Assembly: GCA_000720535.1 (NCBI GenBank)
Contig: JOAZ01000007.1
Coordinates: forward strand, 1-64,000
Direction: 5' to 3'
Source of the DNA: Streptomyces halstedii
GTDB taxonomy: Bacteria > Actinomycetota > Actinomycetes > Streptomycetales > Streptomycetaceae
DNA length: 64,000 nucleotides
The notes under the pieces are model-generated. The model did not search any database. It saw only the letters and a program-made list of their open reading frames with translations, and was not told the DNA's origin. This document shows, one piece after another, positions 6,220 to 58,540 of the stretch (its first letter is position 1; each line of letters opens with the position of its first letter). Position numbers and translations under genes: made by a program.

Positions 6220-6311
6220 GTCGGAACGGCCCCGCGTCGGAACGGCCCCGCGTCGGAACGGCCCCGCGTCGGAACGGCCCCGCGTCGGAACGGCCCCGCG
6301 TCGGAACGGCC
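6220..6311. repeat. 16-bp tandem repeat, about 5.75 units
   Basis: Five exact copies of GTCGGAACGGCCCCGC occupy 6220-6235, 6236-6251, 6252-6267, 6268-6283 and 6284-6299, with a partial sixth to 6311. The array sits between the end of the oxidoreductase gene and the facing DUF202 gene and forms the 3' part of the DUF202 reading frame. Since 16 is not a multiple of 3, each gain or loss of a unit shifts that frame. Confidence 0.95.
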
Positions 6312-6586
6312 ACCGTGCACGCCACGGCCGCCAGTGCGTGGCGCGCCACCAGCGGCGCCGGTTCGGCCGCGCCCATGCGGCCCACCCGCCGGTGCGCCAC
6401 CCGCAGGAAGCCCAGCCACGCCACCAGGCCCGTCGCGAGGCCGGTCAGCGCGGCGGCGTCCGCCCCGCCGCGCACCGCCTGCCGGACCGCGAGCAGCGCC
6501 ACCACCGTGCAGGACAGCGTCGTACGCCGCCAGGCCAGCCGGGTCCGCTCCGGCTGGAGCCCCGGATCGCGTGGGGAGCCCGTCAC
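6305..6586 (-). pseudogene. DUF202 membrane protein whose 3' end is replaced by a tandem repeat
   Basis: The frame starts at a GTG (6586) that overlaps the stop of the preceding DUF202 gene by 4 nt (GTGA). It encodes 94 family-like residues: the DUF202 hallmark QPERTRLAWRRT, a first membrane helix (about 24-38), a second (about 46-63), and the beginning of a third (ALAAVACTVAV). The frame then enters the 16-bp repeat array, reading PTRGRSDAGPFRRGAV twice, and stays open antisense to the oxidoreductase gene down to a stop at 4916. DUF202 proteins of this kind normally end just after the third helix, so the native terminus appears lost. Whether a longer product is made is unknown. Confidence 0.65.
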
Positions 6587-7074
6587 GAGTCCTCCCAGCC
6601 GAACAGGACCACCACCACCATCATGACGGCCACCACGGCGACCGCCAGACTCAGCAGGACGGGGAAGCGGGACACCGGCAGATCCTCGCCGCGCCGCATC
6701 GCCCGCTCGCAGCGGACCCAGTGGTTGACCGCCCGCAGCGCGCACAGGACACCGGCCACCAGCAGGGCGAGCGCGAGACCGGCCCGCACGCCCCACGCCA
6801 GGTGCGGCAGGAACTGATCGACGGCGAAACCCCCGCCGATCAGCGCCAGAGCCGTCCGGAGCCAGGCGAGGAACGTGCGCTCGTTGGCGAGCGAGAAGCG
6901 GTAGTCGGGCGTGACGCCCTCCGCGCGGACCCGCTCCGGCGCGAACCAGAGCCGCACCCCGCGCGCGGACCCGCCGGACCCGCCCGGACCGGACCCGCCC
7001 GGACCCTCCCCACCCGTATCGTCCGTGCCCCCGGCGCCCCCCGCGCCCGCATCCGTACCGCTCGGCCCGCTCAC
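6583..7074 (-). CDS. YidH-like DUF202 membrane protein
   Basis: The 163-residue product has a Gly/Pro-rich N-terminal 40 residues, then the DUF202 signature SLANERTFLAWLRTALAL and three predicted membrane helices, the last (LLSLAVAVVAVMMVVVVLF) near the C-terminus. The GTG at 7074 overlaps the Nudix stop codon by 4 nt (GTGA), which argues for translational coupling and against the longer open frame upstream. The family is known (YidH/YidG type) but has no settled biochemical role. A second DUF202 gene follows with the same 4-nt overlap; paired DUF202 genes are common. Confidence 0.8.
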   Translation of the reverse strand: MSGPSGTDAGAGGAGGTDDTGGEGPGGSGPGGSGGSARGVRLWFAPERVRAEGVTPDYRFSLANERTFLAWLRTALALIGGGFAVDQFLPHLAWGVRAGLALALLVAGVLCALRAVNHWVRCERAMRRGEDLPVSRFPVLLSLAVAVVAVMMVVVVLFGWEDS

Positions 7075-7598
7075 CGTGTGGATCCCGCCTCCCGGGCGCG
7101 GAACTCCCGCAGCCGGTCGTAGGCCTCCCGCCCGTCCGGTACCCAGGTCCAGTCCGGCAGCCGGCGCTCCAGCTCCGCGTCGGTCAGGAAGGTGTGCCAG
7201 GCCACCTCCTCGGCCTGCGGCCGCACCGGCGACGCGCACCGCACCTGGTACACGGCCGACCACCAGCTGTGCTCGGCGCTCTCGTACAGGAAGGTGAACA
7301 GCGGCTCGGGGCGGGGGAGTCCGGACACGCCCAGCTCCTCCTCCGCCTCCCGCAGCGCCGCGTCGTCGTACGACTCGCCCGCGCCCACGACCCCGCCGAC
7401 GAACATGTCGTAGTACGAGGGGAAGAGCATCTTCGTGGGCGTCCTGCGGTGCACGAAGATCCGGCCCGCCGGGTCGCGCGCCTCGATGAAGACGCAGCGG
7501 TGGCGCAGGCCGCGCGCGGTCGCCTCGCCGCGGGGCGCCTGCCCGACGACCATGTCGTGCTCGTCGACGATGTCCAGGATCTCGTCAGCCGGATTCAT
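7071..7598 (-). CDS. Nudix hydrolase
   Basis: The protein of about 175 residues contains a complete Nudix box, GVVGAGESYDDAALREAEEELGV, which binds the metal and hydrolyses a nucleoside diphosphate linked to a variable group. Overall layout resembles the YfcD-type Nudix proteins (MNPADEILDIVDEHDMVVG at the N-terminus). Start codons at 7598 and 7607 both fit; 7598 is preferred because homologues begin near MNPADE and a GAGGAG run precedes it closely. The gene overlaps the 3' end of the DMT transporter gene by 14 nt and is coupled to the DUF202 gene downstream. Confidence 0.8.
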   Translation of the reverse strand: MNPADEILDIVDEHDMVVGQAPRGEATARGLRHRCVFIEARDPAGRIFVHRRTPTKMLFPSYYDMFVGGVVGAGESYDDAALREAEEELGVSGLPRPEPLFTFLYESAEHSWWSAVYQVRCASPVRPQAEEVAWHTFLTDAELERRLPDWTWVPDGREAYDRLREFRAREAGSTR

Positions 7599-8508
7599 GC
7601 TCCTCATCCAACCCCACCCCACTGACAGCCGTGGACCCGTGTCCGGCCCCGTTCTTCCCGGGCGGCATCGCGGGGTGCCTGCCGAGCAGCACGATCCCCG
7701 TCACGATCGCCGCCAGCCCCGCCGCCTGCCAGGCCAGGGCCGCCGCGTCGGTCCGCACGTGATCGCCCAGGAACCCGATGCCACAGACGATGCCGGCGAG
7801 CGGCTGCGCGGCGGTGAGCGGGGGCAGCGACACCCGCAGCGGACCCGCCTCGAAGGCGCTCTGGACCATGATCAGGCTGGTCACCCCCATGACGACGAGC
7901 GCGTACGGCTCCCAGCTCATGAACAGCGAGGCCCAGCCCTCCCCGGTCAGCCGCATCCCGCAGACCCGGGTCAGGGCGTCCTGCAAGCCGTACAGCAGAC
8001 CGCCCGCCAGCCCCAGCAGCGCCGGGGTCCACGGTGCCCGCCGGTGCCGGGCGAAGGCGGTGAGCGTCAGCGACAGCCCCGCCACCACGCCGATCACCAG
8101 CCACCGCCGCAGGGGTTCCGTCACCGCCTCCCCGCCCTTCGGCTGCCCCGCCAGCAGGAACACGGCGACCCCGCAGGCCAGCAGCCAGAGACCGCCCCAG
8201 CCCTGCCGGCCGAGCCGCTGCCCGGTCAGCCAGCGTGACAGGCCCATGGCGAACAGTAGATTGGTGGCCATCAGCGGTTCGACGACCGACACCTCGCCCT
8301 GGCCCAGCGCGAGGGCGCCGAGGACCATGCCGCAGATCATCAGACCGATACCGGCCAGCCAGCTCGGTACCCGCATGAGGTCGAGCAGCAGCCGGGGCGA
8401 GAGGAAGTCGGCCGACGGCGCGGTGCGGGCCGCGGCCTGTTGGAGGACGAAACCGAGGCCCAGGCAGCACGCGGCACCGACGGAGAGCAGGACGACCAGC
8501 ACGGACAC
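7585..8508 (-). CDS. DMT superfamily (EamA-like) integral membrane transporter
   Basis: A roughly 307-residue protein with about nine or ten hydrophobic helices and two repeated halves, as in drug/metabolite transporters. The first helix starts VSVLVVLLSVGAACCLGLGFVLQ, followed by helices near MVLGALALG, LLFAMGLSRWL and GLWLLACGVAVFLLAG. The C-terminus is cytosolic and hydrophilic. The GTG at 8508 is preferred because it places the first helix at the N-terminus; a GTG at 8604 would add 32 basic residues. The gene heads a tightly packed cluster with the Nudix and DUF202 genes. Substrate unknown. Confidence 0.7.
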   Translation of the reverse strand: MSVLVVLLSVGAACCLGLGFVLQQAAARTAPSADFLSPRLLLDLMRVPSWLAGIGLMICGMVLGALALGQGEVSVVEPLMATNLLFAMGLSRWLTGQRLGRQGWGGLWLLACGVAVFLLAGQPKGGEAVTEPLRRWLVIGVVAGLSLTLTAFARHRRAPWTPALLGLAGGLLYGLQDALTRVCGMRLTGEGWASLFMSWEPYALVVMGVTSLIMVQSAFEAGPLRVSLPPLTAAQPLAGIVCGIGFLGDHVRTDAAALAWQAAGLAAIVTGIVLLGRHPAMPPGKNGAGHGSTAVSGVGLDEEHESG

Positions 8509-8736
8509 GTTCCGACGATAAACCCGAGAACGTACGAGATCGGTGAAGCCGCTCCAGGCGGCACGGTTGACGTGGCGGCGGCGGGTGCCGAAGATCTGAC
8601 GCACGAGTAACTTCGGGGGCTCCCGGCGCGCCGTCCGTCCCGTACGCCTGCCCGCGCCACGTACCGCCCGCCCGCCTCACCGTTACGCTCCCGCCCCACC
8701 CGTACCGCACCCGCATCGCCCCGGAGGACGAAACCC

Positions 8737-10392: not shown

Positions 10393-10413
10393 GGGGCGCG
10401 ACCGGTCTGTCCG

Positions 10414-10508
10414 GCCTCCGACGGCGAAGGCTTCCGACGGCGAACGCTTCCGAGGGCGAAGGCTTCCTGGGGCGCAGGCTTCCGACGGCGCGGGCTTCCG
10501 GGGCGAAC
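10414..10508. repeat. Imperfect 16-bp tandem repeat, about six units
   Basis: Units resembling GCTTCCGACGGCGAAC start at 10414, 10430, 10446, 10462, 10478 and 10494, each differing by one to four bases. The array fills the convergent junction between the FAD dehydrogenase and gntP. Its period equals that of the array at 6220, and both contain CGTCGGAA on one strand. Confidence 0.85.
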
Positions 10509-10557
10509 GGGGCCGCCGCCCGGCGCGACCGCGCTGCCGACGGGCCCCGTACACACG

Positions 10558-14531: not shown

Positions 14532-15160
14532 TGACCGCCCGCATCGACCACCTGGTCACCTCCGGCACCTTCGCCCTCGACGGCGGCGAGTGGGACGTCG
14601 ACAACAACGTCTGGATCATCGGTGACGACACCGAGGCGGTCGTCGTCGACGCCGCCCACGACGCCGCCGCCATCGAGGCCGCGCTCGGTGGACGTACGCT
14701 GCGCGCGATCATCTGCACCCACGCGCACAACGACCACATCGACGCCGCACCGGCCCTGGCCGACGCCACCGGGGCGCCGATCCTGCTGCACCCGGACGAC
14801 CTGCCGCTGTGGCGGCAGACCCACCCGGACCGCACCCCCGACGCCGAACTGGCCGACGGGCAGGAACTGGAGGTCGCGGGCGTACGCCTGACGGTCCTGC
14901 ACACGCCGGGGCACGCCCCCGGCGCGGTCTGCCTCTACGCCCCGCGGCTGAACACCGTCTTCACCGGGGACACGCTCTTCCAGGGCGGGCCCGGCGCCAC
15001 CGGGCGGTCCTTCTCGGACTTCCCGACGATCGTCGACTCCATCAGGGACCGGCTGCTCGGCCTTCCGACGGACACCGTCGTGCGCACCGGACACGGAGAC
15101 TCCACCACCGTGGGCGCGGAGGCCCCGCACCTTCAGGAGTGGATCGCCCGCGGCCACTGA
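14531..15160 (+). CDS. MBL-fold metallohydrolase coupled to mscR
   Basis: The 209-residue protein has the metallo-beta-lactamase fold. Its metal motif is THAHNDHIDAAP (HxHxDH), followed by HTPGHAPGAVCLY, FTGDTLFQGGPGATGRSF and RTGHGDSTTVG, the same order as in glyoxalase II. It overlaps mscR by one base (TGATG). By analogy with glutathione systems it may hydrolyse S-formylmycothiol, the product of mscR, to formate and mycothiol; this function is inferred from the operon. Its last codons lie in a 40-bp tandem duplication. Confidence 0.85.
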   Translation: MTARIDHLVTSGTFALDGGEWDVDNNVWIIGDDTEAVVVDAAHDAAAIEAALGGRTLRAIICTHAHNDHIDAAPALADATGAPILLHPDDLPLWRQTHPDRTPDAELADGQELEVAGVRLTVLHTPGHAPGAVCLYAPRLNTVFTGDTLFQGGPGATGRSFSDFPTIVDSIRDRLLGLPTDTVVRTGHGDSTTVGAEAPHLQEWIARGH

Positions 15161-15230
15161 CCGACCAAGCCCCGTTCACCGGTCCGGCCACGGCCACTGA
15201 CCGACCGGGCCCCGTTCACCGGTCCGGCCA
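15151..15230. repeat. 40-bp tandem duplication at a convergent junction
   Basis: Positions 15151-15190 and 15191-15230 are identical except for AA versus GG at one dinucleotide. The first unit contains the stop of the MBL gene; the second contains the stop of the pseudouridine synthase on the other strand. Each copy therefore carries both stop contexts, showing that the original junction was duplicated. Confidence 0.97.
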
Positions 15231-16160
15231 CGCGGACAGCCGCAGCCCGCTCTCGAAGCGGCGCTCGGCACCCGTGACCGGATCGGTGAACTCCAGCACC
15301 CGGGCCAGCAGTTGCAGGGGACGCCCGTAGTCCTCCCGGCCGGGCGCCGGTTCCGGCCGTACCACCGGGTACACCGGGTCGTGGACCAGCGGCAGCCCCA
15401 GCCCGTTCATGTGCACCCGCAGCTGATGGGTGCGCCCGGTCGCGGGCAGCAGCCGGTAGCGGCCGAGCCCTGCGCGGTGCTCCAGCAGCTCGATCCGGGT
15501 CTCACTGTTCGCCTCACCCGGCTCCACCCGGGCGGCGAGGATCCCGCGCTCCTTGACGATCCGGTTCCGTACGGTGCGCGGAAGCGTCACCCGCGGGTCG
15601 TACGGCGCCACCGCCTCGTACTCCTTGCGCACCAGCCGGTCCCGGAACAGCGTCTGGTAGGCGCCCCGCTCCTCCGGCCGCACGACGAAGAGCACCAGGC
15701 CCGCGGTCAGCCGGTCCAGCCGGTGCGCGGGCTGGAGCGCGGTGATCCCCAGGAGGGCACGCGACCGGGCCACGGCGGTCTCGGTGATGTGCCGGCCGCG
15801 CGGGGTGGTCGCCAGGAAGTGCGGCTTGTCCACGACCACGAGGTGCGCGTCGCGGTGGACCACCTCCACCGGGAACGGCACCGGCACCTCCGGCGCGAAG
15901 TCCCGGTGGAACCAGACATGGCGCCCGGCGGTGTACGGCTCGTCCCCGCCCACCGCGCCGCCGTCCGCCCCCACGAACCGTCCCCCGGCCAGCATGGCGT
16001 CCACCCGGGCGGCGCCGATCGCCCCCGCGAACCGGTCCAGCAGGTGGTCGCGGACGGTCGGCCACGCCCCGGCGGCGTCCTCGGGGAACCGCACCCGCAC
16101 CGGATCGACCCCCTGCCGCTGCGGCAGCGGGGCCGCGGGGGGCCTGGCCCGTCCTCTCAT
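15216..16160 (-). CDS. RluA-family RNA pseudouridine synthase
   Basis: The 314-residue protein isomerises uridine to pseudouridine in structured RNA. The catalytic Asp lies in HRLDRLTAGLVLFV, and the family motif EVVHRDAHLVVVDKP precedes it. GRTHQLRVHMNGLGLPLVHDPVYP closes the active site. A longer open frame extends to 16256, but GGAGAAGG upstream of 16160 supports MRGRARPPAAP as the start. The target RNA is unknown. It is convergent with the MBL gene. Confidence 0.88.
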   Translation of the reverse strand: MRGRARPPAAPLPQRQGVDPVRVRFPEDAAGAWPTVRDHLLDRFAGAIGAARVDAMLAGGRFVGADGGAVGGDEPYTAGRHVWFHRDFAPEVPVPFPVEVVHRDAHLVVVDKPHFLATTPRGRHITETAVARSRALLGITALQPAHRLDRLTAGLVLFVVRPEERGAYQTLFRDRLVRKEYEAVAPYDPRVTLPRTVRNRIVKERGILAARVEPGEANSETRIELLEHRAGLGRYRLLPATGRTHQLRVHMNGLGLPLVHDPVYPVVRPEPAPGREDYGRPLQLLARVLEFTDPVTGAERRFESGLRLSAWPDR

Positions 16161-16254
16161 CGTCCCGTTCCTTCTCCTCGCCTCGTCCCGGGCCCTCTCC
16201 CCGCGTCGGGCGGCCGCGTCGGGCGGCTCCCGGCCGCGACGTGCCCGGCAACGC

Positions 16255-20152: not shown

Positions 20153-20360
20153 CTCCGCCCACCCTGCTCCCGCCCCGCTCCCGCCCACTCCCGCCCGCTC
20201 CGCTGGTCCCCGGTACGCCCCGCACCGGGGGCCAGCGCGGCTCTTCGTGCCCTGCCCCCGCACGGACCCGCCGTGCCCTGATACGGGCCGGTGGGGCCGT
20301 GCGGGGCTATGGGCCTGAAGGGACCGGTGGGCCCGGCGGACCAGTGGGCCGGTGGGTCCG

Positions 20361-20396
20361 TGGGGCTGAACGGGGTCATGGGGCTGAACGGGGCCG
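20361..20396. repeat. 18-bp tandem duplication and related G-rich repeats
   Basis: TGGGGCTGAACGGGGTCA (20361-20378) is followed by TGGGGCTGAACGGGGCCG (20379-20396). Related GGTGGGCC/GGTGGGTCC strings fill 20320-20400. The 273-bp gap 20153-20425 between convergent genes holds nothing else recognisable. Confidence 0.8.
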
Positions 20397-20425
20397 TGGG
20401 TCCGTCCCACCGGCCCCTCAGCGCC

Positions 20426-22771
20426 TCATACCGCAGAGACGGAGCCGTCAGGGGCGGGCAGCGCCTCCAGCAGCGGACGGAGTCTGGTCGTCCGCTCCTG
20501 GACCGGGATCTCGGCCACGGCGCGCGGCAGGGCCTGGTCCACCCCGTGCACCACGGACAGATGCCGCTCACCACGGCTGAACGCGGTGTAGACCCAGGGG
20601 CGGCTCAGCCCGCGGGCCGCGTCGCCCGGCAGCACGACGACCACGGCGGGCCAGCGCATCCCGGCCGCCTGGTGGGCACTGAGCGCCCAGCCGTGCCGGA
20701 CCGAGGACTCCACCCGCTCCGGCCGCACGACGACGGGCGTCCCCGAGCAGTCCAGACGCAGGCCCTCCGCGTCGGCCGACACGACCGACCCGGGCACCAC
20801 CCGGCCCGGTGCCGGTACGTGGACGACCCGGTCGCCGGGGTCGAAGCCGCCGAACCGGCCGGGCCCCGGATTGAGCCGCTGCTTCAGCGCCGCGTTCAGC
20901 GCCGTGGTGCCGGCCGAGCCGCCGTGCCCGACGGTGATGACCTGGGTGTCGGACGGCGGTACGCCGATGGCGCGCGGCACCGAGTCCGCGACCAGCTGCA
21001 CCGTGCGGTGGACCGCCTCACCGGCGTCCCGGACGGGCACGATCACGACCTCCTTGCCGGGTGCGTCGACCTGCCCGAGCTCGCCGATGCCGATGCCCGA
21101 GACCAGCTCGCCGAGGGGACCGGGGTCGGGCGTGCGCGAGACCACCACCGGGCAGGCCCGTGCGGCGAGCACATCCGCGAAGACCCGTCCGGCGCCGGCC
21201 GAGCCGAGCACACCGGGATCACCGCTGAGCACCAGCCGGGTGCCGTCCGCCAGCGCCTCCACGAGCATCGCGCCCGTCTCCACGTCGAGCTGCGGGGCGT
21301 CCAGCACCACCAGCAGGTCGACGGCGAGGGCACCGTCCGCGTCCCGCCCGGGTCCGGCGGCGCCGGAGAGCAGATCGGACAGGACGACGGCGGACCGGGG
21401 ATCACCGACGGCGGCGGCCAGCCCGCGCGCCCCGTCCACGCTGTGGGTGGTGCCCACGGCCCGCAGCCCGAGCCCGTGGGCGGCGGCGATCAGGGCGGCG
21501 GGCTCGGCCCGCGCGCTCTCGCCGCCGCTGTGGGCGACCAGCCCGGCCGTCGCGGCGGTCAGGATCAGCTCACGGGCGGAGGGGGAGGGGGCGGCAGCGG
21601 CGGCGTCCGACCAGTCGGCGCCCTTCTCGCAGGAGTTGACGATCCGGCCCAGCCCGTCCGCGAGCGCCTCCTCGGCCAGGGCGTACCGGTCGAGTCCCAG
21701 CAGGACCGGCACCGGCTCCGGCTCGTCCGGCGCGCCGCCCTCCTGCCCGGCACCGTCCCCGGTGTCCTCCGCGTCCCGCGCCTCCTCCCCGGCCGTGCTG
21801 CCGTCCTCCCCGGCGGCCGGGTCCAGGCCTTCCTGGAAGACCAGGACGACCCCCTCCGCGACGGCGTGCCGCACGGCCGCCTCGGGGTCGCCCACCGCAC
21901 GCTCGGCGAGGGCCGCCCGGACCTCCGTGGCGTCCAGGGCCGTGTGGCCCCGCAACGCGGCCCGCTCCAGCACCCAGCCCACGAGGGCGGCCGTACGCCG
22001 CTCGTCGTCCGGACCGCAGTCGGCGCCGAGCAGCGCGCGGGCGAAGCCGTCGGCCTGCTCCGGGCGTACACCGGGCACGGAGAGCAGCTGCCACGGGTCC
22101 TCCCGCAGGATCCCCGCGGCCTGTTCACCGAGCGACGCGGCGGTCGGGTGCGCCAGCGTCTTCGGGGCCCCGCCCTGGGCGAGCACCGCCTCGACCGAGG
22201 CCGCCGTCCCGGGGGAGACGGATCGCTCGGCGGGCTGCCCGGCGGGCCCGGACGGCCGTACGGGTGCGGGCGTCGCCGCCGGTGCGGCCCGCCGGGGGGC
22301 CGGGGCCGACGCGGGGGAGTCGAAGAAGGCCGTGCCCGGCTTCTCGCCGCTCTCCACGGCCCGTACGGCGGCGAGGAGGTCGGCGGCGGGACCGCTCAGC
22401 TTCGCTCCGGCGGCCGGCGGCCCCTTCTTCGCGGCCTTGCGCTCCTCGATCCGCTCCCGCAGCTCCCGCTGCGCCGCCAGCTCCGCCTCGGCCTCCGACA
22501 CGGCGGGAGACCCGGGCTCCGACACGGCGGGCGCCTCGGCCCCGTCCGCGTCCGCCTCGGCGGCCCGCTCCGCTCCCGTCCCGCCGTCCTGGCCGTCGCC
22601 CCCGGCCCCGTCCGCGTCCCCGTCCGCCGGGGCCGCGGCGTCTCCGCCGCCCTCCGCGTCGCTCCCACCGTCAGGCGTGCCGGCCGGGGCGGAGGCCTCG
22701 TCGCGGGCCTCGCGGGCCCGGTCGTCCTCGGCCGCGGGGTCCGGGGTCTCGCCCCGGTCAAGCGCAGTCAC
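20426..22771 (-). CDS. RecD-like helix-hairpin-helix protein with degenerate ATPase motifs
   Basis: The 781-residue protein has an acidic, low-complexity first 130 residues. A helix-hairpin-helix region follows (LSVPGVRPEQADGFARALLG), with winged-helix-like parts as in RecD2, then a helicase-like half. The C-terminal UvrD_C_2-type segment is recognisable: SSVRHGWALSAHQAAGMRWPAVVVVLP ... RPWVYTAFSRGERHLSVVHG. The stretch where RecD2 has a GxGKT Walker A reads LILTAATAGLVAHSGGESA, and the DE box reads LLVVLDAPQLDVETG, so ATP hydrolysis looks lost. The GTG start overlaps the aldo/keto reductase stop by 4 nt. It may be a non-catalytic DNA-binding relative. Confidence 0.75.
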   Translation of the reverse strand: MTALDRGETPDPAAEDDRAREARDEASAPAGTPDGGSDAEGGGDAAAPADGDADGAGGDGQDGGTGAERAAEADADGAEAPAVSEPGSPAVSEAEAELAAQRELRERIEERKAAKKGPPAAGAKLSGPAADLLAAVRAVESGEKPGTAFFDSPASAPAPRRAAPAATPAPVRPSGPAGQPAERSVSPGTAASVEAVLAQGGAPKTLAHPTAASLGEQAAGILREDPWQLLSVPGVRPEQADGFARALLGADCGPDDERRTAALVGWVLERAALRGHTALDATEVRAALAERAVGDPEAAVRHAVAEGVVLVFQEGLDPAAGEDGSTAGEEARDAEDTGDGAGQEGGAPDEPEPVPVLLGLDRYALAEEALADGLGRIVNSCEKGADWSDAAAAAPSPSARELILTAATAGLVAHSGGESARAEPAALIAAAHGLGLRAVGTTHSVDGARGLAAAVGDPRSAVVLSDLLSGAAGPGRDADGALAVDLLVVLDAPQLDVETGAMLVEALADGTRLVLSGDPGVLGSAGAGRVFADVLAARACPVVVSRTPDPGPLGELVSGIGIGELGQVDAPGKEVVIVPVRDAGEAVHRTVQLVADSVPRAIGVPPSDTQVITVGHGGSAGTTALNAALKQRLNPGPGRFGGFDPGDRVVHVPAPGRVVPGSVVSADAEGLRLDCSGTPVVVRPERVESSVRHGWALSAHQAAGMRWPAVVVVLPGDAARGLSRPWVYTAFSRGERHLSVVHGVDQALPRAVAEIPVQERTTRLRPLLEALPAPDGSVSAV

Positions 22772-25142: not shown

Positions 25143-25931
25143 ATGCTCTCGGCGAAGAGTCTGTTCCAGGAGATCCTCGACAACGACGACGCGTTCCGCC
25201 TGTTCTGCTCGATCGCGGCCGGCGGAGAGGCCCAGGGCGGCTGGGAGAACGGACGGATCGCCTCCCTCGTCCCCGCGTCCCTGCGCGGCCTCGGTCCCAA
25301 GATCGCCCGGCACGGCGCCGACGAGGACAAGCACGGCCGGATCTTCAACGCCCTGCTGAAGCAGCGCGGCCTGACGCCCGCCGAGGTGCCGCTGGAGACG
25401 GACTACACCCTCCTGCTGGAACGCCGGGGCATCGGCCTCGCCCATGAGCGGCTCGGCCGCGACGTGCCGCTGACCGAGCGGGACATCATCGTCTACCTCG
25501 CCCACAGCAGGGTCACCGAACAGCGGGCCTCCGAGCAGATGGGACTGCTGCTGCGGCTCTTCGGGGACCACCCCGCCCTGGGGCGCGCGGTGAGGATGAT
25601 CTCCCGGGACGAGGACAACCACCTCGCCTACTGCCACGAGGAACTGCTCCGTCTGGCCGCCGCCGGGCACGGCCGTACGATCCACACCGTCCTGCGCGAG
25701 TGCGCCCTCGCCGAGATCCGTGTGTACCGGGACGTCAGCCTCGCCGTGATGAGCCACATGGGCGCCGTACTGCGCTGGCCCCGCGCCAAGGCGGCCCTGC
25801 CGGCCGCCGGGATCCACGCCACGTACGCGTACGAGCGGGCGGGAGGCTGGCGGCGCATGGTGAGCCTCCGGCAGCCCGTCCGGCGCGACGCGCTGGGTGT
25901 CCCGCCCGTCCCGGACGCGGAGTACGCCTGA
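25143..25931 (+). CDS. Ferritin-like domain protein
   Basis: The 262-residue protein is mostly helical. Metal-ligand type residues recur as in diiron four-helix bundles: HGADEDKHGRIF, ERDIIVYLAHSRVTEQRASEQ and RDEDNHLAYCHEELL. It resembles uncharacterised actinobacterial ferritin-like proteins. AAAGGCGG stands before the ATG at 25143; an earlier in-frame ATG at 25089 has no site. Whether it stores iron or acts as an oxidase is unknown. Its 3' end abuts a 37-bp tandem duplication. Confidence 0.8.
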   Translation: MLSAKSLFQEILDNDDAFRLFCSIAAGGEAQGGWENGRIASLVPASLRGLGPKIARHGADEDKHGRIFNALLKQRGLTPAEVPLETDYTLLLERRGIGLAHERLGRDVPLTERDIIVYLAHSRVTEQRASEQMGLLLRLFGDHPALGRAVRMISRDEDNHLAYCHEELLRLAAAGHGRTIHTVLRECALAEIRVYRDVSLAVMSHMGAVLRWPRAKAALPAAGIHATYAYERAGGWRRMVSLRQPVRRDALGVPPVPDAEYA

Positions 25932-25933
25932 GC

Positions 25934-26007
25934 GGGCGGTACCGGCTACAGCCAGCCGCAGGGCTTGGACGGGCGGTACCGGCTACAGCCAGCCGCGGCG
26001 CTTGAAC
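25934..26007. repeat. 37-bp tandem duplication at a convergent junction
   Basis: Units 25934-25970 and 25971-26007 match at 34 of 37 positions, each beginning GGGCGGTACCGGCTACAGCC. The second unit contains the last codons and stop of corA. The first is a decayed copy beyond it, next to the ferritin-like gene stop at 25931. Confidence 0.95.
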
Positions 26008-26969
26008 TGGCGGTACAGGCTGAAGACCACGAGCACCATCAGCCCGATGACCGCCGGGTACGCCCACACCCAGCCCAGCTCCGGCATGTGCCGGAAGTTC
26101 ATGCCGTAGATCCCCGCCACCATGGTCGGTACGGCCGCCATCGCCGCCCAGGCCGAGATCTTCCGCATGTCGTCGTTCTGCTGCACGCCCACCTGGGCCA
26201 GATGCGCCGAGAGGATGTCCGACAGCAGCCGGTCCAGCCCCTCCACGAGCTCGCTGGCACGGGTCAGGTGGTCGCCCACGTCCCGGAAGAACGGCCGTGA
26301 GCGCGTGTCGACGAACGGCACCGACGAGCTCGCCAGCCGCTCCATCGGCGCCGCCAGCGGGCCGGCCGCCCGGCGGAACTCCAGCAGCTGCCGCTTGAAG
26401 GTGTAGATGCTCGCGGCGGTGTTCTTGGTGTCCGTGCCGCTCTCCGGGGCGAACACGTCCGCCTCCAGCTCCTCCAGGTCCGTCTGGAGCTCCGCCGCGA
26501 CCACGATGTAGTGGTCCACCACCGCGTCGCAGACCGCGTACAGCACCGCCGTCGGGCCGTGCTTGAGCAACTCCGGGTCCGCCTCCAGACGGTGCCGTAC
26601 GTCCGCGAGCGGCGATCCCTCGCCGTGCCGGACCGTCACCACGAAGGAGCCGCCCACGAAGAGCATCAGCTCGTCCGTGGTGACCGCGTCGCTCGCCGAG
26701 TCGTAGACCACCGGTTTGACGACCACGAAGAGCGAATCGTCGTAGATCTCCAGCTTCGGCCGCTGATGGGCGCGCAGGGCGTCCTGCACCGCCAGCGGAT
26801 GCAGCCCGAACTCGTTGCTGACGAGGTCGAACTCCTCCTCCGTGGGCTCGTACAGGCCGATCCAGACGAATCCGTCCTTCGAGGCGCGGGCCTCGGCGAG
26901 GGCGGCGGAGAAGTCGGTGGGCCCCTCGATCCGGCGCCCGTCCCGATAAATGCCGCAATCCATAATCAC
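25983..26969 (-). CDS. corA: CorA-family magnesium/cobalt channel
   Basis: The 328-residue protein has a large cytosolic N-domain and two C-terminal membrane helices. The channel signature is GMN in VAGIYGMNFRHMPELG, and the tail is basic (YRQFKRRGWL). It mediates divalent cation entry, mainly Mg2+. The GTG at 26969 (MIMDCGIYRDG) has GGGAAG 7 nt upstream; an ATG two codons later is an alternative. It is divergent from the histidine phosphatase gene. Confidence 0.92.
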   Translation of the reverse strand: MIMDCGIYRDGRRIEGPTDFSAALAEARASKDGFVWIGLYEPTEEEFDLVSNEFGLHPLAVQDALRAHQRPKLEIYDDSLFVVVKPVVYDSASDAVTTDELMLFVGGSFVVTVRHGEGSPLADVRHRLEADPELLKHGPTAVLYAVCDAVVDHYIVVAAELQTDLEELEADVFAPESGTDTKNTAASIYTFKRQLLEFRRAAGPLAAPMERLASSSVPFVDTRSRPFFRDVGDHLTRASELVEGLDRLLSDILSAHLAQVGVQQNDDMRKISAWAAMAAVPTMVAGIYGMNFRHMPELGWVWAYPAVIGLMVLVVFSLYRQFKRRGWL

Positions 26970-30850: not shown

Positions 30851-30898
30851 TTCTGCCCGTTCTCATCCTGACGGCGCGTCGGCCGGTTCCGGCACCGG

Positions 30899-30959
30899 CG
30901 GTGCGCCGGACCGGTCCTGGCGGTGCGCGGACCGGTCCTGGCGGTGCGTCAGCCGGTGG
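30899..30959. repeat. 21/22-bp tandem repeat at the mshC/PAC2 junction
   Basis: Units begin CGGTGCG: 30899-30920 (CGGTGCGCCGGACCGGTCCTGG, 22 bp), 30921-30941 (21 bp) and a diverged partial copy from 30942. The last copy contains the PAC2 stop (30949-30951). Confidence 0.85.
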
Positions 30960-34429: not shown

Positions 34430-34441
34430 CCCGCGTGGACC

Positions 34442-34513
34442 GGGCACGCGGCGGGGGCGCGTGGGCAGGGCGCGTGGACGGGGTGTGCGGAAGGGGCACG
34501 TGGCGGGGGCACG
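34442..34513. repeat. Imperfect G-rich repeats at the SDR/FCD junction
   Basis: GGGCACGCGGCGGGGGCGCG (34442-34461) recurs at 34494-34513 with 18 of 20 matches. Shorter GCGTGG and GGGG strings lie between. The 97-bp gap separates convergent genes. Confidence 0.55.
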
Positions 34514-34526
34514 CGGACCGGCCGGC

Positions 34527-35231: not shown

Positions 35232-35305
35232 ATCAGGTCATTATGCGGCCCCCGTCCCCGCCCCGGTCACCGGCTCCCTTCCCGGCCCCGCCCACCACGC
35301 CGGAA

Positions 35306-44109: not shown

Positions 44110-44120
<11 letters not shown>

Positions 44121-44153
44121 CCCGTTGTCCGACGCGCGGTGAGCCGTGGTCCG
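44110..44153. repeat. 22-bp tandem duplication over the metH stop codon
   Basis: Units 44110-44131 (ACGCGCGGTAACCCGTTGTCCG) and 44132-44153 match at 19 of 22 positions. The first holds the TAA stop of metH; the second carries TGA at the equivalent place. Confidence 0.85.
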
Positions 44154-44196
44154 CGCGCCGTATCCGTACGAGTCGTACACTGGTCGGTCCAGTGCA

Positions 44197-46916: not shown

Positions 46917-46978
46917 CACAACCCGGGCCCGGCCCGGGGCTCACCCGCCCCCGGCCGGACCCGTGCGCGGTCCTCCGT

Positions 46979-47062
46979 CTCACCGGGCGCCTGGCGGGTG
47001 CGTCCGTCCCCGCCTCACCGGGCGCCTGACCCGTGCGCCCGTCCCCGCCTCACTGGGCGCCG
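46979..47062. repeat. 35-bp tandem repeat over the response-regulator stop
   Basis: Units 46979-47013 and 47014-47048 begin CTCACCGGGCGCCTG and end GTCCCCGC; a third partial copy starts at 47049 and contains the response-regulator stop (47050-47052). The array fills most of the 133-bp convergent gap. Confidence 0.93.
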
Positions 47063-48747: not shown

Positions 48748-49998
48748 GTGGACAAGAGCGGCGACAGCGGGCGCCCGCAGCCCGGCGCGGGGGGCGGCGA
48801 CCCCGGCTCCGGGCCGGACAAGGGCCGGCCGCGCCGCCCCGAGGACCCCGGCGGCGGCCTCCTCATGGGCCGCCCCTTCGGCGTACCGGTGTACGTCGCG
48901 CCCAGCTGGTTCGTCGTCGCCGCCCTGATCACCTGGGTCTTCGGCGGCCAGCTCGACCGCGTCCTGCCGCACCTCGGCGCCGCCCGCTACCTGGTGGCCC
49001 TCTTCTTCGCGATCGCCTTCTACGCCTCGGTGCTCGTCCACGAGCTCGCCCACACGGTCGTCGCCCTGCGCTACAAGCTGCCGGTCCGCCGGATCCAGCT
49101 CCAGTTCTTCGGCGGCGTCTCGGAGATCGAGAAGGAGTCCGAGACCCCCGGCCGCGAGTTCGTCCTCGCCTTCGTGGGGCCCCTGCTCTCGCTCGTGCTG
49201 GGCGGCCTGTTCTTCATCCCCCTCCAGTTCGTCGAGGCGGGCACCGTCCCCGGTGTGCTGCTCGCCGGGCTGATGGTCTCCAACCTCATCGTCGCTGCCT
49301 TCAACCTGCTGCCCGGCCTGCCCCTGGACGGCGGCCGCATGCTCCGCGCCGTCGTCTGGAAGATCACCGGCAAGCCGATGAGCGGGACCGTCGCCGCCGC
49401 CTGGGTCGGGCGCGGCCTCGCCGTCACCGTCCTCGTCGGGCTGCCGCTGCTCACCCACACCGGCGCGCTCGGCGGCAGGGCCGGTGACATCGGCGGGGTG
49501 GAGACCGTCACCGACGCCCTGCTCGCGGCGATCCTGGCCGCGATCATCTGGACCGGGGCGGGCAACAGCCTGCGGATGGCCCGGCTGCGCGAACACCTCC
49601 CGGACCTGCGCGCCCGCACGCTCACCCGGCGCGCGGTGCCCGTCGAGTCCGCCACCCCGCTCTCCGAGGCGCTGCGCCGCGCCAACGAGGCGGGCGCCCG
49701 CGCCCTGGTCGTCGTCGACGGACAGGGCAACGCCAAGAGCGTCGTCCGCGAGGCCGCCATCGCGGGCGTCCCGGAACACCGCAGGCCCTGGATGGCCGTC
49801 AGCGGACTCGCCCAGGACATCACCGAGGGCATGCGGGTCCCGGCCGAGCTCGCCGGAGAGGCCCTGCTGGACCGGCTCAAGGCGACCCCGGCCACCGAGT
49901 ACCTGGTCGTCGAGGAGAGCGGCGAGATCTACGGCGTCCTGTCCACCACCGACGTGGAGCGCGCCTTCGTGGCCGCGATGGCCCGCCCCCGTTCCTGA
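48748..49998 (+). CDS. Site-2 protease family (M50) with CBS domains
   Basis: The 416-residue membrane metalloprotease has HELAH (zinc, in SVLVHELAHTVVALRY) and the second motif NLLPGLPLDGGRML (zinc Asp). About six helices are followed by tandem CBS-like segments (from ESATPLSEALRRANEAGARALVVV to YGVLSTTDVERAF). Such enzymes cut membrane-anchored substrates such as anti-sigma factors; the target here is unknown. The GTG at 48748 follows GAAGGG. The first 45 residues are a flexible Gly/Pro-rich tail. Confidence 0.9.
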   Translation: MDKSGDSGRPQPGAGGGDPGSGPDKGRPRRPEDPGGGLLMGRPFGVPVYVAPSWFVVAALITWVFGGQLDRVLPHLGAARYLVALFFAIAFYASVLVHELAHTVVALRYKLPVRRIQLQFFGGVSEIEKESETPGREFVLAFVGPLLSLVLGGLFFIPLQFVEAGTVPGVLLAGLMVSNLIVAAFNLLPGLPLDGGRMLRAVVWKITGKPMSGTVAAAWVGRGLAVTVLVGLPLLTHTGALGGRAGDIGGVETVTDALLAAILAAIIWTGAGNSLRMARLREHLPDLRARTLTRRAVPVESATPLSEALRRANEAGARALVVVDGQGNAKSVVREAAIAGVPEHRRPWMAVSGLAQDITEGMRVPAELAGEALLDRLKATPATEYLVVEESGEIYGVLSTTDVERAFVAAMARPRS

Positions 49999-50078
49999 GC
50001 CCGTCCGTTCCTGAGCCGGTCCGTTCCTGAGCCGCGCCCCGCCGCCCGGACCCGTCCGCCCCGCCGCCCGGACCCGCC
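49999..50078. repeat. Two adjacent tandem duplications after the M50 gene
   Basis: A 16-bp unit (CCCGTCCGTTCCTGAG at 50000-50015, CCGGTCCGTTCCTGAG at 50016-50031) repeats the gene end, including its TGA. A separate 22-bp unit (CGCCCCGCCGCCCGGACCCGTC) follows at 50035-50056 and 50057-50078. Confidence 0.9.
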
Positions 50079-50156
50079 GTACCGCCGTCCGAGCCCCCGC
50101 CGCCCGGCCCGGGAACCCCGGAAAGAGGGCCACCGGAATACCGGTAGGCTGAGCAC

Positions 50157-54211: not shown

Positions 54212-54217
54212 AACACA

Positions 54218-54257: not shown

Positions 54258-54447
54258 GTTTTCCCGGGAGTTCCGGCTCCTTCCGAACAATTGACGTAAT
54301 TGATCTCCCCTCCGGCGCGGAGGCGCTCTAGGCTCTGCCGTACCGCCGATGTCGCGCCTGCGGGACGGGCACCGCACGCGCGGGGACCAGCAGCGGTACT
54401 TGAGCGCCGCTCCCGGACGGGGAGCGCCGCCGGGCAAGGAGGGCCGC

Positions 54448-55959
54448 ATGACCGTACGGCGAGTAATGGGCATCGAGACGGAGTACGGGATCTCCGTCCC
54501 CGGTCAACCCAACGCCAATGCCATGCTCACCTCGTCCCAGATCGTCAACGCCTACGCGGCGGCGATGCACCGGGCGCGCCGCGCCCGCTGGGACTTCGAG
54601 GAGGAGAATCCGCTGCGTGACGCGCGAGGCTTCGACCTCGCCCGTGAGACCGCCGACTCCAGCCAGCTCACCGACGAGGACATCGGCCTGGCCAATGTCA
54701 TCCTCACCAACGGCGCACGGCTGTACGTCGACCACGCGCATCCGGAGTACAGCTCCCCGGAGATCACCAACCCGCTGGACGCGGTGCTCTGGGACAAGGC
54801 CGGCGAGCGGGTGATGGCCGAGGCGGCCGAGCGGGCCGCCGCGATCCCCGGCGCCCAGCCGATCCACCTCTACAAGAACAACACCGACAACAAGGGCGCC
54901 TCGTACGGCACGCACGAGAACTACCTGATGAAGCGGGAGACGCCGTTCTCGGACATCGTGCGCCATCTGACGCCGTTCTTCGTCTCGCGCCAGGTCGTCA
55001 CCGGGGCGGGCCGGGTCGGTATCGGCCAGGACGGCCAGGAGCACGGCTTCCAGCTCAGCCAGCGCGCCGACTACTTCGAGGTGGAGGTCGGCCTGGAGAC
55101 CACGCTCAAGCGCCCCATCATCAACACCCGGGACGAGCCCCACTCCGACGCCGAGAAGTACCGCAGGCTGCACGTGATCATCGGCGACGCGAACCTCTCC
55201 GAGATCTCGACCTATCTCAAGCTCGGCACCACCTCGCTGGTGCTCGCCATGATCGAGGACGGCTTCATCAAGGTCGACCTCGCCGTCGACCAGCCGGTGC
55301 GCACCCTGCACCAGGTCTCGCACGACCCCGGCCTCCGGCGGCTCGTCACGCTCCGCAGCGGCCGGACACTGACCGCCGTACAGCTCCAGATGGAGTACTT
55401 CGAGCTGGCCCGCAAATACGTCGAGGAGCGGTACGGCGCGGACGCCGACGAGCAGACGAAGGACGTCCTGGTCCGCTGGGAGGACACCCTGAACCGGCTG
55501 GAGACCGACCCGATGAGCCTGGCGGGTGAGCTGGACTGGGTCGCCAAGCTGGAGCTCATGGAGGGCTACCGGCGCCGTGACAACCTGGGCTGGGACGCCC
55601 CGCGCCTGCACCTGGTGGACCTCCAGTACGCCGACGTACGGCCCGACAAGGGGCTGTACAACCGTCTGGCGTCCCGGGGGAGGATGCGGCGCCTGCTCGA
55701 CGAGAACGACGTCGAGCGGGCCCGCACCAAGCCGCCCGAGGACACCCGGGCCTACTTCCGGGGCCGCTGCCTGGAGCAGTACGCGGACGACGTCGCCGCG
55801 GCCTCCTGGGACTCGGTCATCTTCGACCTGCCCGACCGTGACTCACTGCAACGGGTGCCCACGATGGAGCCGCTGCGGGGGACCCGTGAGCACGTCAAGA
55901 ACCTCCTGGACCGCTGCCGCACCGCGGAGGAGCTGGTCCGGACGCTCACGGGGGGCTGA
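54448..55959 (+). CDS. dop: Pup deamidase/depupylase
   Basis: The 503-residue carboxylate-amine ligase homologue deamidates the C-terminal Gln of Pup and also removes Pup from proteins. Motifs are [14 protein letters not shown] (catalytic Glu/Asp region), [16 protein letters not shown] and [21 protein letters not shown]. The Dop-specific loop follows the [14 protein letters not shown] segment (about 24-70), absent in PafA. AAGGAGGGCC precedes the ATG. It is followed closely by pup. Confidence 0.97.
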
Positions 55960-56052
55960 AAGGCGCGTCGGAGGGGAATCAATCACATGACCTGGGGACG
56001 TTGAGGAAAGTACCGGGCCGATGTCGGACCCCGTGGGTAGGGTCTGATCAAG

Positions 56053-56070
56053 TGCTTCGAATGCTTCGAA
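56053..56070. repeat. 9-bp direct repeat in the pup leader
   Basis: TGCTTCGAA occurs twice in a row at 56053-56061 and 56062-56070, 19 nt before the pup start and 10 nt after TAGGGT (56038-56043), a likely -10 element. It therefore lies at or just after the expected transcript start and could bind a regulator or shape the 5' end. Confidence 0.5.
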
Positions 56071-56088
56071 CCGAGCGGGGTGAGCTAG

Positions 56089-56307
56089 ATGGCGACCAAG
56101 GACACCGGCGGCGGACAGCAGAAGGCGACACGCTCCACCGAGGAGACCGAGGAGCAGGTGCAGGACGCACAGGCGTCCGAGGACCTCAAGGAGCGGCAGG
56201 AGAAGCTGAACGACGACGTGGACGACGTCCTCGACGAGATCGACGACGTCCTGGAGTCCAACGCCGAGGACTTCGTGCGCAGCTTCGTGCAGAAGGGCGG
56301 CCAGTAG
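56089..56307 (+). CDS. pup: Prokaryotic ubiquitin-like protein Pup
   Basis: The 72-residue protein is intrinsically disordered, with a Gln/Glu-rich first half and a helix-forming middle (DLKERQEKLNDDVDDVLDEIDDVLES) that pairs with the ARC coiled coil. It ends VQKGGQ. As the last residue is Gln, Dop must deamidate it to Glu before PafA can ligate it to lysines. GGGGTGAGC precedes the ATG. The hairpin at 56364-56403 separates pup from prcB. Confidence 0.98.
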   Translation: MATKDTGGGQQKATRSTEETEEQVQDAQASEDLKERQEKLNDDVDDVLDEIDDVLESNAEDFVRSFVQKGGQ

Positions 56308-56363
56308 CGGCCGGATCCCCGGACCGCCGGGGCCGTCGGCCGGCCCGTGCCGCCGGCCGGTAG

Positions 56364-56403
56364 TTCCGCGGGATGCCCGTATCCGTACCGGCATCCCGCG
56401 GAA
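56364..56403 (+). terminator. Hairpin between pup and prcB
   Basis: Perfect arms TTCCGCGGGATGCC (56364-56377) and GGCATCCCGCGGAA (56390-56403) lie around a 12-nt loop. Position suggests it limits read-through from pup into the proteasome subunit genes. Confidence 0.8.
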
Positions 56404-56425
56404 TCGCTTCCGCACCGGGATCGTG

Positions 56426-56453
56426 TTGATCACCGCCGACAGGCGGGTAGGGT
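56426..56453 (+). promoter_or_regulatory. Candidate vegetative promoter of prcB-prcA
   Basis: TTGATC (56426-56431) and TAGGGT (56448-56453) are separated by 16 nt, close to the housekeeping-sigma consensus of actinobacteria. It lies after the terminator hairpin and about 98 nt before the prcB start. Confidence 0.6.
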
Positions 56454-56550
56454 CCGTGGCGTAGTGCTTCAACTGCAATTCGGCCGTCGGCAAGTTGGGG
56501 GATGATCCTGACACCTTGCGCGGGGCCGCCGCATACCTGGAGGGAATCGC

Positions 56551-57396
56551 GTGGAAGCCAACACTCGTAGTACCGGGCGTCTACCAGCTGCCTTCCTGAC
56601 GCCGGGCTCGTCCTCGTTCATGGACTTCCTGTCCGGCCACGTGCCCGAGATGCTGCCCGGCAACCGCAGCCTCCCGCCCGTGCAGGGCGCGTTCGAGGCG
56701 CCGCACGGTACGACGATCGTGGCGGCCACGTTCCCCGGCGGGGTGGTGCTCGCCGGTGACCGGCGGGCCACCATGGGCAACATGATCGCCCAGCGCGACA
56801 TGCAGAAGGTGTTCCCGGCCGACGAGTACTCGGCGGTGGGCATCGCCGGCACGGCCGGACTCGCGATCGAGATGGTCAAGCTGTTCCAGCTGGAGCTGGA
56901 GCACTTCGAGAAGGTCGAGGGCACCACGCTCTCCCTGGAGGGCAAGGCCAACCGCCTGTCCACGATGATCCGCGGCAATCTCTCGATGGCCATGCAGGGC
57001 CTCGCCGTCGTCCCGCTGTTCGCCGGTTTCGACGTCGACCGCGGGAAGGGCCGGATCTTCTCCTACGACGTCACCGGCGGCCGGTCGGAGGAGCAGGGGT
57101 ACGCCTCCACCGGCTCCGGATCCCTCTTCGCGCGGGGCTCGATGAAGAAGCTCTACCGCGACGACCTGACCGAGGAGCAGGCGCTCACCCTGGTCGTGCA
57201 GGCGTTGTACGACGCGGCGGACGACGACTCGGCCACCGGCGGCCCCGACCTGGCCCGGCGGCTCTTCCCGATCGTCACCGTCATCACCGACGAGGGCTTC
57301 CGGAAGCTGACCGACGCGGAGTCCTCCGAGGTCGCGCGCTCGGTCGTCGAGCGCCGGCTCCAGGAGCCCGACGGCCCGCGCGCCGCCCTGCTCTGA
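56551..57396 (+). CDS. prcB: 20S proteasome beta subunit
   Basis: The 281-residue precursor carries a 53-residue propeptide. The catalytic Thr54 is within [24 protein letters not shown], so cleavage before it exposes the active N-terminus. Lys and Asp partners are present ([12 protein letters not shown] region). Mature beta rings form the two inner rings of the chamber. The GTG start is used. It is 55 nt before prcA and cotranscribed. Confidence 0.97.
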
Positions 57397-57451
57397 CCGG
57401 CCCGACTCCTCTTCGATGCACTCGTCACTGACAGAAAGGGACGGATAGCCG

Positions 57452-58333
57452 GTGTCGACGCCGTTCTATGTCTCACCCCAGCAGGCCATGGCCGACCGGG
57501 CGGAATACGCCCGGAAGGGCATCGCCCGTGGTCGCAGCCTGGTTGTGCTGCAGTACGCCGACGGCATTGTGTTCGTCGGCGAGAACCCGTCCCGTGCTCT
57601 GCACAAGTTCAGCGAGATCTACGACCGGATCGGCTTCGCGGCCGCCGGCAAGTACAACGAGTACGAGAACCTCCGCATCGGCGGCGTCCGTTACGCGGAC
57701 CTGCGCGGATACACCTACGACCGCGACGACGTGACGGCCCGTGGGCTCGCCAACGTCTACGCGCAGACGCTGGGCACCATCTTCTCCAGCGCCGCCGAGA
57801 AGCCGTACGAGGTGGAGCTGGTGGTCGCCGAGGTGGGCGCCGGGCCCGAGGGCGACCAGATCTACCGGCTGCCGCACGACGGCTCGATCGTGGACGAGCA
57901 CGGCTCGGTCGCGGTCGGCGGCAACGCGGAACAGATCAGCGGCTTCCTGGACCAGCGTCACCGTGACGGGATGTCACTCGCCGAGGCGCTGAAGCTGGCC
58001 GTGCAGGCCCTTTCGCGGGAGGCCAACGGCAACGAGCGGGAGATCCCCGCCGAGCGGCTGGAGGTCGCGGTCCTGGACCGGACGCGGCCGCAGCAGCGCA
58101 AGTTCAAGCGGATCGTGGGGCGGCAGCTGACCCGGCTGCTCGACGCGGACGGCGCGGGTGCGACCCCGACGGACGCCCCGTCCGACACGGAGGAGCCCGA
58201 CGCCCCGTCCTCGGGGGACGCGGGCGGCACCGGCCGGGAAGGCGCGGCGGAGACCGGTGCCGGGGAGACCGGCAAGGACGGCAAGGACGGTGCCGATGGC
58301 GCCGACGGCACGGAAGGGTCCGGGAAGGAGTAG
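57452..58333 (+). CDS. prcA: 20S proteasome alpha subunit with long C-terminal tail
   Basis: The 293-residue subunit forms the outer gate rings. The N-terminus [27 protein letters not shown] is the gating segment typical of PrcA. The folded domain ends near residue 232 (LTRLLDAD). A tail of about 60 residues follows, rich in Gly, Asp, Glu and Thr and ending with collagen-like [20 protein letters not shown]. It is longer than I expect for Streptomyces PrcA (about 250 to 260 residues), and no HbYX-type motif is present. The tail may come from repeat expansion. Confidence 0.96.
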
Positions 58334-58465
58334 CCCTCCTCGCCCGGTGACCGAACGGACGCCCCCGGCAGCCCCCACGCGGCGGCCGGGGGCGCCGTCG
58401 CGCTCCGGGCCAGGCCGGGCTTGAGCTCGCGGGCCGGGCCTGAGCGGGCTGGGCGCGCGGCCCGA

Positions 58466-58540
58466 GGCCCGGGGCACCGCCGTACCGCCAGGCCCGGGGC
58501 ATCACCGTACGGTCACGGCCGGGGCACCGCCGTACCGTCA
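58466..58540. repeat. 25-bp tandem repeat, three units, over the lacI-type stop
   Basis: Units 58466-58490, 58491-58515 and 58516-58540 follow the pattern GGCCCGGGGCACCGCCGTACCGTCA with a few substitutions. The stop of the facing regulator gene (58538-58540) is the last codon of the third unit. The gap separates prcA from that gene. Confidence 0.95.

What the first reader, a model, noticed from the sequence alone, without database searches (positions are those of the whole stretch)
6220..58540. Short tandem duplications recur at convergent gene ends
Nine of the twelve convergent gene junctions in this window carry a tandem duplication or repeat: 16 bp at 6220 and 10414, 40 bp at 15151, 18 bp at 20361, 37 bp at 25934, 21/22 bp at 30899, weak at 34442, 35 bp at 46979 and 25 bp at 58466. 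In several, one unit contains a stop codon of one or both genes. Two same-strand gene ends (metH at 44110, M50 protease at 49999) show it too. I saw none of similar clarity inside coding regions. This may reflect replication slippage where two transcripts meet, or relaxed selection after stops, but the regularity is striking. Unit sizes differ, so it is not one mobile repeat.
Basis: seen in the sequence. Interest (0 to 1): 0.7.

Follow-up and report, generated by a model that had tools for sequence, protein, structure and literature searches.

The report
Slippage duplications tolerated after stop codons
Short head-to-tail DNA duplications really do pile up where genes end in this Streptomyces genome, most likely because copying slips that fall after a stop codon harm nothing and so persist; convergent gene ends look special mainly because they hold two such safe zones and no promoter.

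Summary
In detail: with my own gene calls and TRF, 9 of 12 convergent junctions in the window carry an array. In 1.2 Mb sampled elsewhere in the same genome the ranking holds: 37/146 convergent, 63/399 codirectional and 19/169 divergent gaps of at least 20 bp; shuffled gaps give few or none. The window is an upper outlier (9/11 against 37/146), and it was picked because it looked striking.

The feature belongs to gene 3' ends more than to convergence. Arrays peak 60-120 bp after stops and nearly vanish just before starts. Over five samples, arrays overhang 72 stops and 4 starts. Per gene end, convergent (46/336) and codirectional (48/399) rates are alike. Most orthologous junctions in other Streptomyces lack arrays. 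Units do not fold beyond shuffles and mostly lie apart from terminator-like stems.

Best reading: slippage duplications that survive where they are silent. A modest extra effect of convergence is not excluded, and one other Streptomyces shows the reverse ranking. The kind is ordinary; the 3.6-fold difference in burden between related species is the better lead.

The parts
6189..6311 (.). 16-bp unit x7.6 in convergent gap 6139/6583 (zinc-dehydrogenase-like / DUF202 genes)
   Evidence: TRF score 202, 95% match; Pfam
10417..10509 (.). 16/32-bp array in convergent gap 10392/10621 (FAD_binding_2 / GntP permease)
   Evidence: TRF score 126; Pfam
15151..15232 (.). 40-bp duplication spanning both stop codons of convergent gap 15160/15216 (Lactamase_B / pseudouridine synthase); the gap in relative G187 is 4 bp
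   Evidence: TRF score 150, 95%; Pfam; ortholog
20354..20400 (.). 18-bp array in convergent gap 20152/20426; the gap in G187 is 65 bp, here 273 bp
25925..26021 (.). 37-bp array spanning both stops of convergent gap 25931/25983; copies of the corA 3' end (coding tail RQFKRRGWL*, neighbouring copy RPSKPCGWL*)
   Evidence: TRF score 145; Pfam CorA; translations; G187 gap 15 bp
30897..30948 (.). 21-bp array next to the stop of the PAC2 gene in convergent gap 30701/30949; a hairpin seen also in relatives lies elsewhere in the gap
   Evidence: TRF score 97; Pfam; orthologs by eye
34432..34521 (.). weak 26-bp array in convergent gap 34429/34527
   Evidence: TRF score 89, 68% match
44110..44162 (.).
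   Evidence: TRF score 71
46954..47061 (.). 35-bp array reaching over the stop of a LuxR-type response regulator gene; convergent gap 46916/47050 is 133 bp here, 22 bp in G187
   Evidence: TRF score 140; Pfam; stop-containing motif repeated in the units
49989..50109 (.). 16-bp x2.9 over the M50 protease stop, then 22-bp x3.4; same-strand gap 49998/50157
   Evidence: TRF scores 85 and 88; Pfam
58398..58548 (.). 29-bp and 25-bp arrays in convergent gap 58333/58538 (proteasome subunit / LacI family)
   Evidence: TRF scores 70 and 119; Pfam
16152..16208 (.).
   Evidence: TRF score 65
35246..35296 (.). 25-bp array in a same-strand gap (35198/35345)
   Evidence: TRF score 67
6974..7005 (.). perfect 15-bp duplication in a same-strand gap (6957/7071)
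   Evidence: TRF score 64

Best explanation
The arrays are tandem duplications, mostly of 13-40 bp, made by replication slippage between short direct repeats and kept where they do no harm. A tandem duplication whose unit reaches past a stop codon leaves the protein unchanged, because the first copy still holds the stop. A convergent gap is therefore silent from both sides. A codirectional gap is silent only in its upstream, 3' part, and a divergent gap is bounded by promoters and starts on both sides. Shown here: position, stop/start asymmetry, like rates per gene end, absence at most orthologous junctions, end microhomology, no fold in the units. Inferred: that slippage is the mutational step and that selection, not local mutation rate, sets the pattern.
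For: Coverage by arrays reaches 18-20% at 60-120 bp after stops in convergent gaps and 9% at 60-90 bp in codirectional ones, and is 0.0-0.2% within 15 bp upstream of starts. Gene ends overhung by arrays: 72 stops (70 arrays), 4 starts. Periods of stop-overhanging arrays show no frame (22, 22 and 26 for remainders 0, 1 and 2), whereas 109 of 115 arrays inside genes are multiples of 3. Arrays per 3' end outside the window: 46/336 convergent, 48/399 codirectional, the latter counting only arrays nearer the stop and corrected gaps of at least 20 bp. Of the window's 12 convergent junctions 6 could be matched in relative G187: 4 carry arrays here and 0 there, with gaps of 55, 273, 51 and 133 bp against 4, 65, 15 and 22 bp (the window was picked for its arrays). 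Arrays of score 60 or more are at only 3/53, 7/74, 6/42 and 0/6 orthologous junctions in loci of other Streptomyces, those printed being unalike by eye. No unit is shared among 151 intergenic arrays of this genome beyond shuffled units (28 against 26 of 11,325 pairs share 12 bp). End microhomology of perfect two-copy duplications averages 5.1 bp (141 intergenic) against 1.3 in simulated ones. Indels of 8 bp or more between close species are most frequent in convergent gaps (37, 6.6 and 4.5 per kb).
Against: In a fixed 100-bp stretch after the stop, convergent ends beat codirectional ones (21/121 against 9/152, Fisher p 0.003), though long convergent gaps are partly long because of arrays. In G312 the ranking is reversed (2/42 convergent, 21/146 codirectional, 8/52 divergent). 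At TRF score 100 or more, convergent and codirectional gaps do not differ (9/146, 24/399). Microhomology is weakest where arrays are densest: convergent median 2 bp, mean 3.1 (35), codirectional mean 5.8 (81), divergent 5.8 (25), and no microhomology at all is the commonest single value (28 of 141); partial copies left from longer arrays could mimic it. In close-species alignments few indels looked like tandem duplications anywhere (1 of 73, 2 of 66, 2 of 19). Within-species copy-number change could not be looked for.
Confidence: 0.72

Rival explanations
1. Convergent gene ends are a mutational hotspot: colliding or terminating transcripts, or fork/transcription conflict, raise the slippage rate there.
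For: Fixed 100-bp stretches after stops: 21/121 convergent against 9/152 codirectional. Gap-matched coverage is about twofold higher in convergent gaps of 200-300 bp. Mantel-Haenszel odds ratio 1.74, convergent against all other gaps, over five samples.
Against: Per gene end, rates are alike. Per stop-proximal kb after length correction the differences are not significant (p 0.58, 0.29, 0.068), though all three lean to convergent. Leading and head-on codirectional genes have similar array rates (22/234 and 14/126; my sums). G312 has fewer arrays at convergent gaps.
Confidence: 0.16
2. The arrays work: as terminators, backup stops, or RNA elements at 3' ends.
For: Position just after stops; some units hold a stop codon.
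Against: Unit folding z-scores average 0.01 and -0.11 (51 and 65 units). Arrays cover 15% of the best stem where random placement predicts 37% (23 arrays). Stop-overhanging periods are not mainly multiples of three (22 of 70). Most orthologous junctions have none. No strand preference in codirectional arrays (34 C-rich, 33 G-rich of 70).
Confidence: 0.06
3. The terminator hairpins provoke slippage in neighbouring DNA, so arrays mark hairpin-bearing ends.
For: Stems of at least 11 bp are common in convergent gaps (49%, 1% in shuffles).
Against: Of 44 array-bearing convergent gaps of 50-600 bp, 19 have such a stem; of 77 array-free ones, 40 do. So stems are not commoner where arrays are.
Confidence: 0.05

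Closest known systems
Slippage-generated VNTR/minisatellite loci of bacteria (recalled class)
   Same: Head-to-tail units, lineage-specific, partial end copies.
   Different: Here many short, mostly 2-3 copy arrays spread over gene 3' ends; copy-number polymorphism within a species could not be tested.
Tandem repeats of archaeal Borg elements (PMC9879509; passages read)
   Same: Recent, independently arising; repeats in ORFs have periods divisible by three; about half intergenic or with the first unit in a gene end; flanking partial repeats.
   Different: Borg units are perfect and A-enriched; these are G+C-rich, often decayed, and lie on a bacterial chromosome.
Bidirectional intrinsic terminators of convergent genes (recalled class)
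   Same: Strong stems lie in the same gaps and look alike in relatives by eye.
   Different: The arrays lie mostly outside the stems and their units do not fold beyond shuffles.

Membership tests
Slippage-generated tandem repeats (VNTR-like) | Adjacent head-to-tail copies beyond chance | tested here: met
   TRF and a second detector against shuffles
Slippage-generated tandem repeats (VNTR-like) | End microhomology in perfect two-copy duplications | tested here: met
   141 intergenic, mean 5.1 bp against 1.3 simulated; 4 bp or more in 34% convergent, 44% codirectional, 60% divergent against 4% simulated; decay of longer arrays not excluded
Slippage-generated tandem repeats (VNTR-like) | Copy number varies between strains of a species | not testable with these tools
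   The genome collections hold one genome per species
Slippage-generated tandem repeats (VNTR-like) | Absent or different at orthologous sites | tested here: met
   Present in 3/53, 7/74, 6/42, 0/6 junctions; 0 of 6 in G187
Dispersed mobile repeat (MIRU/REP/BOX-like) | One unit sequence shared among sites | tested here: not met
   151 intergenic units of this genome's sample share long words hardly more than shuffled units: 28 against 26 pairs at 12 bp, 8 against 3 at 14 bp, of 11,325; longest shared by two of the 16 window units 11 bp
Intrinsic terminator element | Unit folds into a stem more stable than shuffles | tested here: not met
   Mean z 0.01 (51 units) and -0.11 (65 units)
Backup stop codons | Period a multiple of three so copies are in frame | tested here: not met
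   22 of 70 stop-overhanging arrays

The most novel reading that the evidence does not exclude
Convergent gene ends in actinomycetes are true hotspots of tandem-duplication mutation, driven by transcripts meeting or terminating there, and lineages differ several-fold in this mutational activity; the gaps between convergent genes grow by repeated copying of gene tails.
Probability: 0.15. Interest if true: 0.65.

Novelty: new member of a known kind. Interest (0 to 1): 0.36.

Why it matters
It turns a striking visual pattern into a simple rule: short duplications persist where they are silent, and a stop codon makes the far side of a gene end silent. It also explains part of how convergent gaps can grow in Streptomyces, by copies of gene tails, and shows that array burden differs about 3.6-fold between two related species of near-equal G+C (0.80 against 0.23 arrays per intergenic kb; G+C 0.724 and 0.719). 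If the residual convergent excess proved mutational, it would be a direct footprint of transcription on genome evolution.

Tried and rejected
Terminator or RNA function, Rho-type C-rich skew in codirectional arrays (34 C-rich, 33 G-rich of 70), in-frame backup stops, replication orientation, a shared mobile unit, G+C as the cause of locus differences (Spearman 0.05 over 79 of 80 loci, one locus under 12 kb dropped). Arrays in convergent gaps had a higher absolute skew than array-free gap centres (0.21, 56 arrays, against 0.14, 86 gaps, p 0.001); I did not pursue this. A NucS family match is present in all four genomes searched, so its loss does not explain the burden; a passage read in PMC11109965 says that loss of NucS 'did not considerably affect' the indel rate in its Streptomyces strain and reports only 1-4 bp indels. 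Ku and other repair genes were not searched. The close-species duplication count (13 hand-picked pairs, gaps over 700 bp dropped) was too sparse to decide. Paper searches (open-licence PMC only, listings seen; three of them returned no paper) listed nothing that describes this pattern in Streptomyces; that is weak evidence of absence. An E. coli stretch was fetched but not analysed.

Limits: my gene caller is home-made. Genes under 60 codons with low score and gaps under 20 bp were left out of most counts. The own-genome sample is 60 stretches of 20 kb from contigs C1-C11, not random. The 80 loci all come from one orthologous region. In the self-check, confidence was lowered from 0.74 to 0.72 and the hotspot rival raised from 0.15 to 0.16, because convergent duplications show the weakest microhomology.
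Full report
What is there. TRF on the window lists 103 rows at score 30 or more. A home-made codon-model gene caller, trained on the window plus 60 stretches of the same genome (1.264 Mb), finds 12 convergent junctions in the window.

Is it more than chance, and general? Arrays per 10 kb in window plus stretches are 16.2 convergent, 8.3 codirectional, 4.7 divergent and 1.1 coding at TRF score 60. Leaving the window out, gaps of at least 20 bp with an array are 37/146, 63/399 and 19/169; convergent against divergent p 0.002, against codirectional p 0.013. Three rounds of dinucleotide-shuffled gaps gave 0, 0 and 1 gap at score 70. A different detector on gaps of 60-500 bp agrees: 27/99, 34/309 and 11/149 against 1.4%, 0.6% and 0.4% in shuffles. 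At score 100 the convergent-codirectional difference disappears (9/146, 24/399). The window is an outlier within its own genome (9/11 against 37/146, p 0.0003). It was picked because it looked striking, so I do not read more into that; clustering among the other stretches is not significant (p 0.08).

It is a gene-end feature. Array coverage climbs from 7% just after stops to 18-20% at 60-120 bp in convergent gaps, and peaks at 9% in codirectional ones; it is 0.0-0.2% within 15 bp upstream of starts. Over five samples arrays overhang 72 stops and 4 starts. Inside genes 109 of 115 arrays have periods divisible by three; arrays in gaps show no clear frame. Counting per 3' end outside the window, convergent ends carry 46/336 and codirectional ends 48/399 (stop-proximal arrays only). 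Per stop-proximal kb, with gap lengths corrected for the extra copies, convergent values are 1.8, 3.4 and 2.2 and codirectional 1.2, 2.5 and 1.0 in three length classes, none significantly different (p 0.58, 0.29, 0.068), though all lean the same way. In fixed 100-bp stretches after stops convergent ends lead clearly, 21/121 to 9/152, p 0.003. Selecting long convergent gaps favours array-bearing ones, so I regard a convergence effect as unresolved rather than shown.

How old are the arrays? A stretch of a complete relative (G187; about 90% identical over the 3' part of mshC; fetched) has orthologs for 6 of the window's 12 convergent gaps. Four carry arrays here and none there, and the gaps are 55, 273, 51 and 133 bp here against 4, 65, 15 and 22 bp; in codirectional gaps 2 of 19 carry arrays here and 0 there, in divergent gaps 0 of 8 in both. 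Among 80 Streptomyces loci around the window's mshC gene, orthologous junctions carry arrays in 3/53, 7/74, 6/42 and 0/6 cases. Where printed they differ by eye in unit and place, while similar hairpins recur. At the corA junction the array consists of copies of the corA tail: the gene ends RQFKRRGWL* and the neighbouring copy reads RPSKPCGWL*. At 15151 one 40-bp duplication spans both stops, so each gene keeps an intact end. The 151 array units sampled in this genome are not one family.

Mechanism. A duplication that reaches past a stop leaves the protein unchanged, so such events are silent; those overlapping starts and promoters are not. Perfect two-copy duplications have end microhomology of 5.1 bp on average (141 intergenic) against 1.3 bp for simulated duplications without it, as expected of slippage between short direct repeats. 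The effect is smallest in convergent gaps (35 cases, median 2 bp, 34% with 4 bp or more against 4% simulated), and partial copies from decayed longer arrays could add to it. Units do not fold beyond shuffles, and arrays mostly avoid the strong stems of convergent gaps (17 of 23 arrays with no overlap). Indels in general are most frequent in convergent gaps between close species, which fits relaxed constraint, although such gaps align poorly and few indels there were recognisable tandem duplications (1 of 73).

Variation between genomes. Arrays per intergenic kb: 0.80 in this genome without the window, 0.23 in G187 (p 5e-6), 0.68 in G312, 0.64 in G026 of another family, 0.61 over 79 of the 80 loci. 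Convergent enrichment holds in four of five samples and reverses in G312; pooled odds ratio 1.74, p 0.0002. Replication orientation makes no visible difference in three genomes with the origin placed by dnaA (for G026 a circular chromosome with opposite terminus was assumed). Burden shows no relation to G+C among the loci, and a NucS match is present in all four genomes searched.

Verdict. A true, statistically solid pattern with an ordinary explanation: slippage duplications persist in the untranslated, promoter-free DNA after stop codons. The open points are a possible residual convergent excess and the several-fold difference between species.

Noticed in passing
window 16152-16227: Two different tandem repeats (23 bp and 13 bp units) next to each other in a divergent gap, where arrays are rare.
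   Followed up: no
L108, L119, L089 near the mshC gene: A short motif (GCTGCGGGCAGTCGTG) lies after mshC in three of the 267 loci held, and four times in all in L108; looks like a dispersed small repeat.
   Followed up: partly
window 20426-22771 (-): RecD2-type helicase-like gene is only 69% identical to the G187 ortholog although most neighbouring genes are 78-95% identical.
   Followed up: no
G000 versus G187: Median convergent gap is 98 bp in this genome and 55 bp in the relative G187, with a 3.6-fold higher array burden.
   Followed up: partly
own genome, convergent arrays: Arrays in convergent gaps have higher absolute G/C skew than array-free gap centres (0.21 against 0.14); no preferred strand in codirectional gaps.
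   Followed up: no
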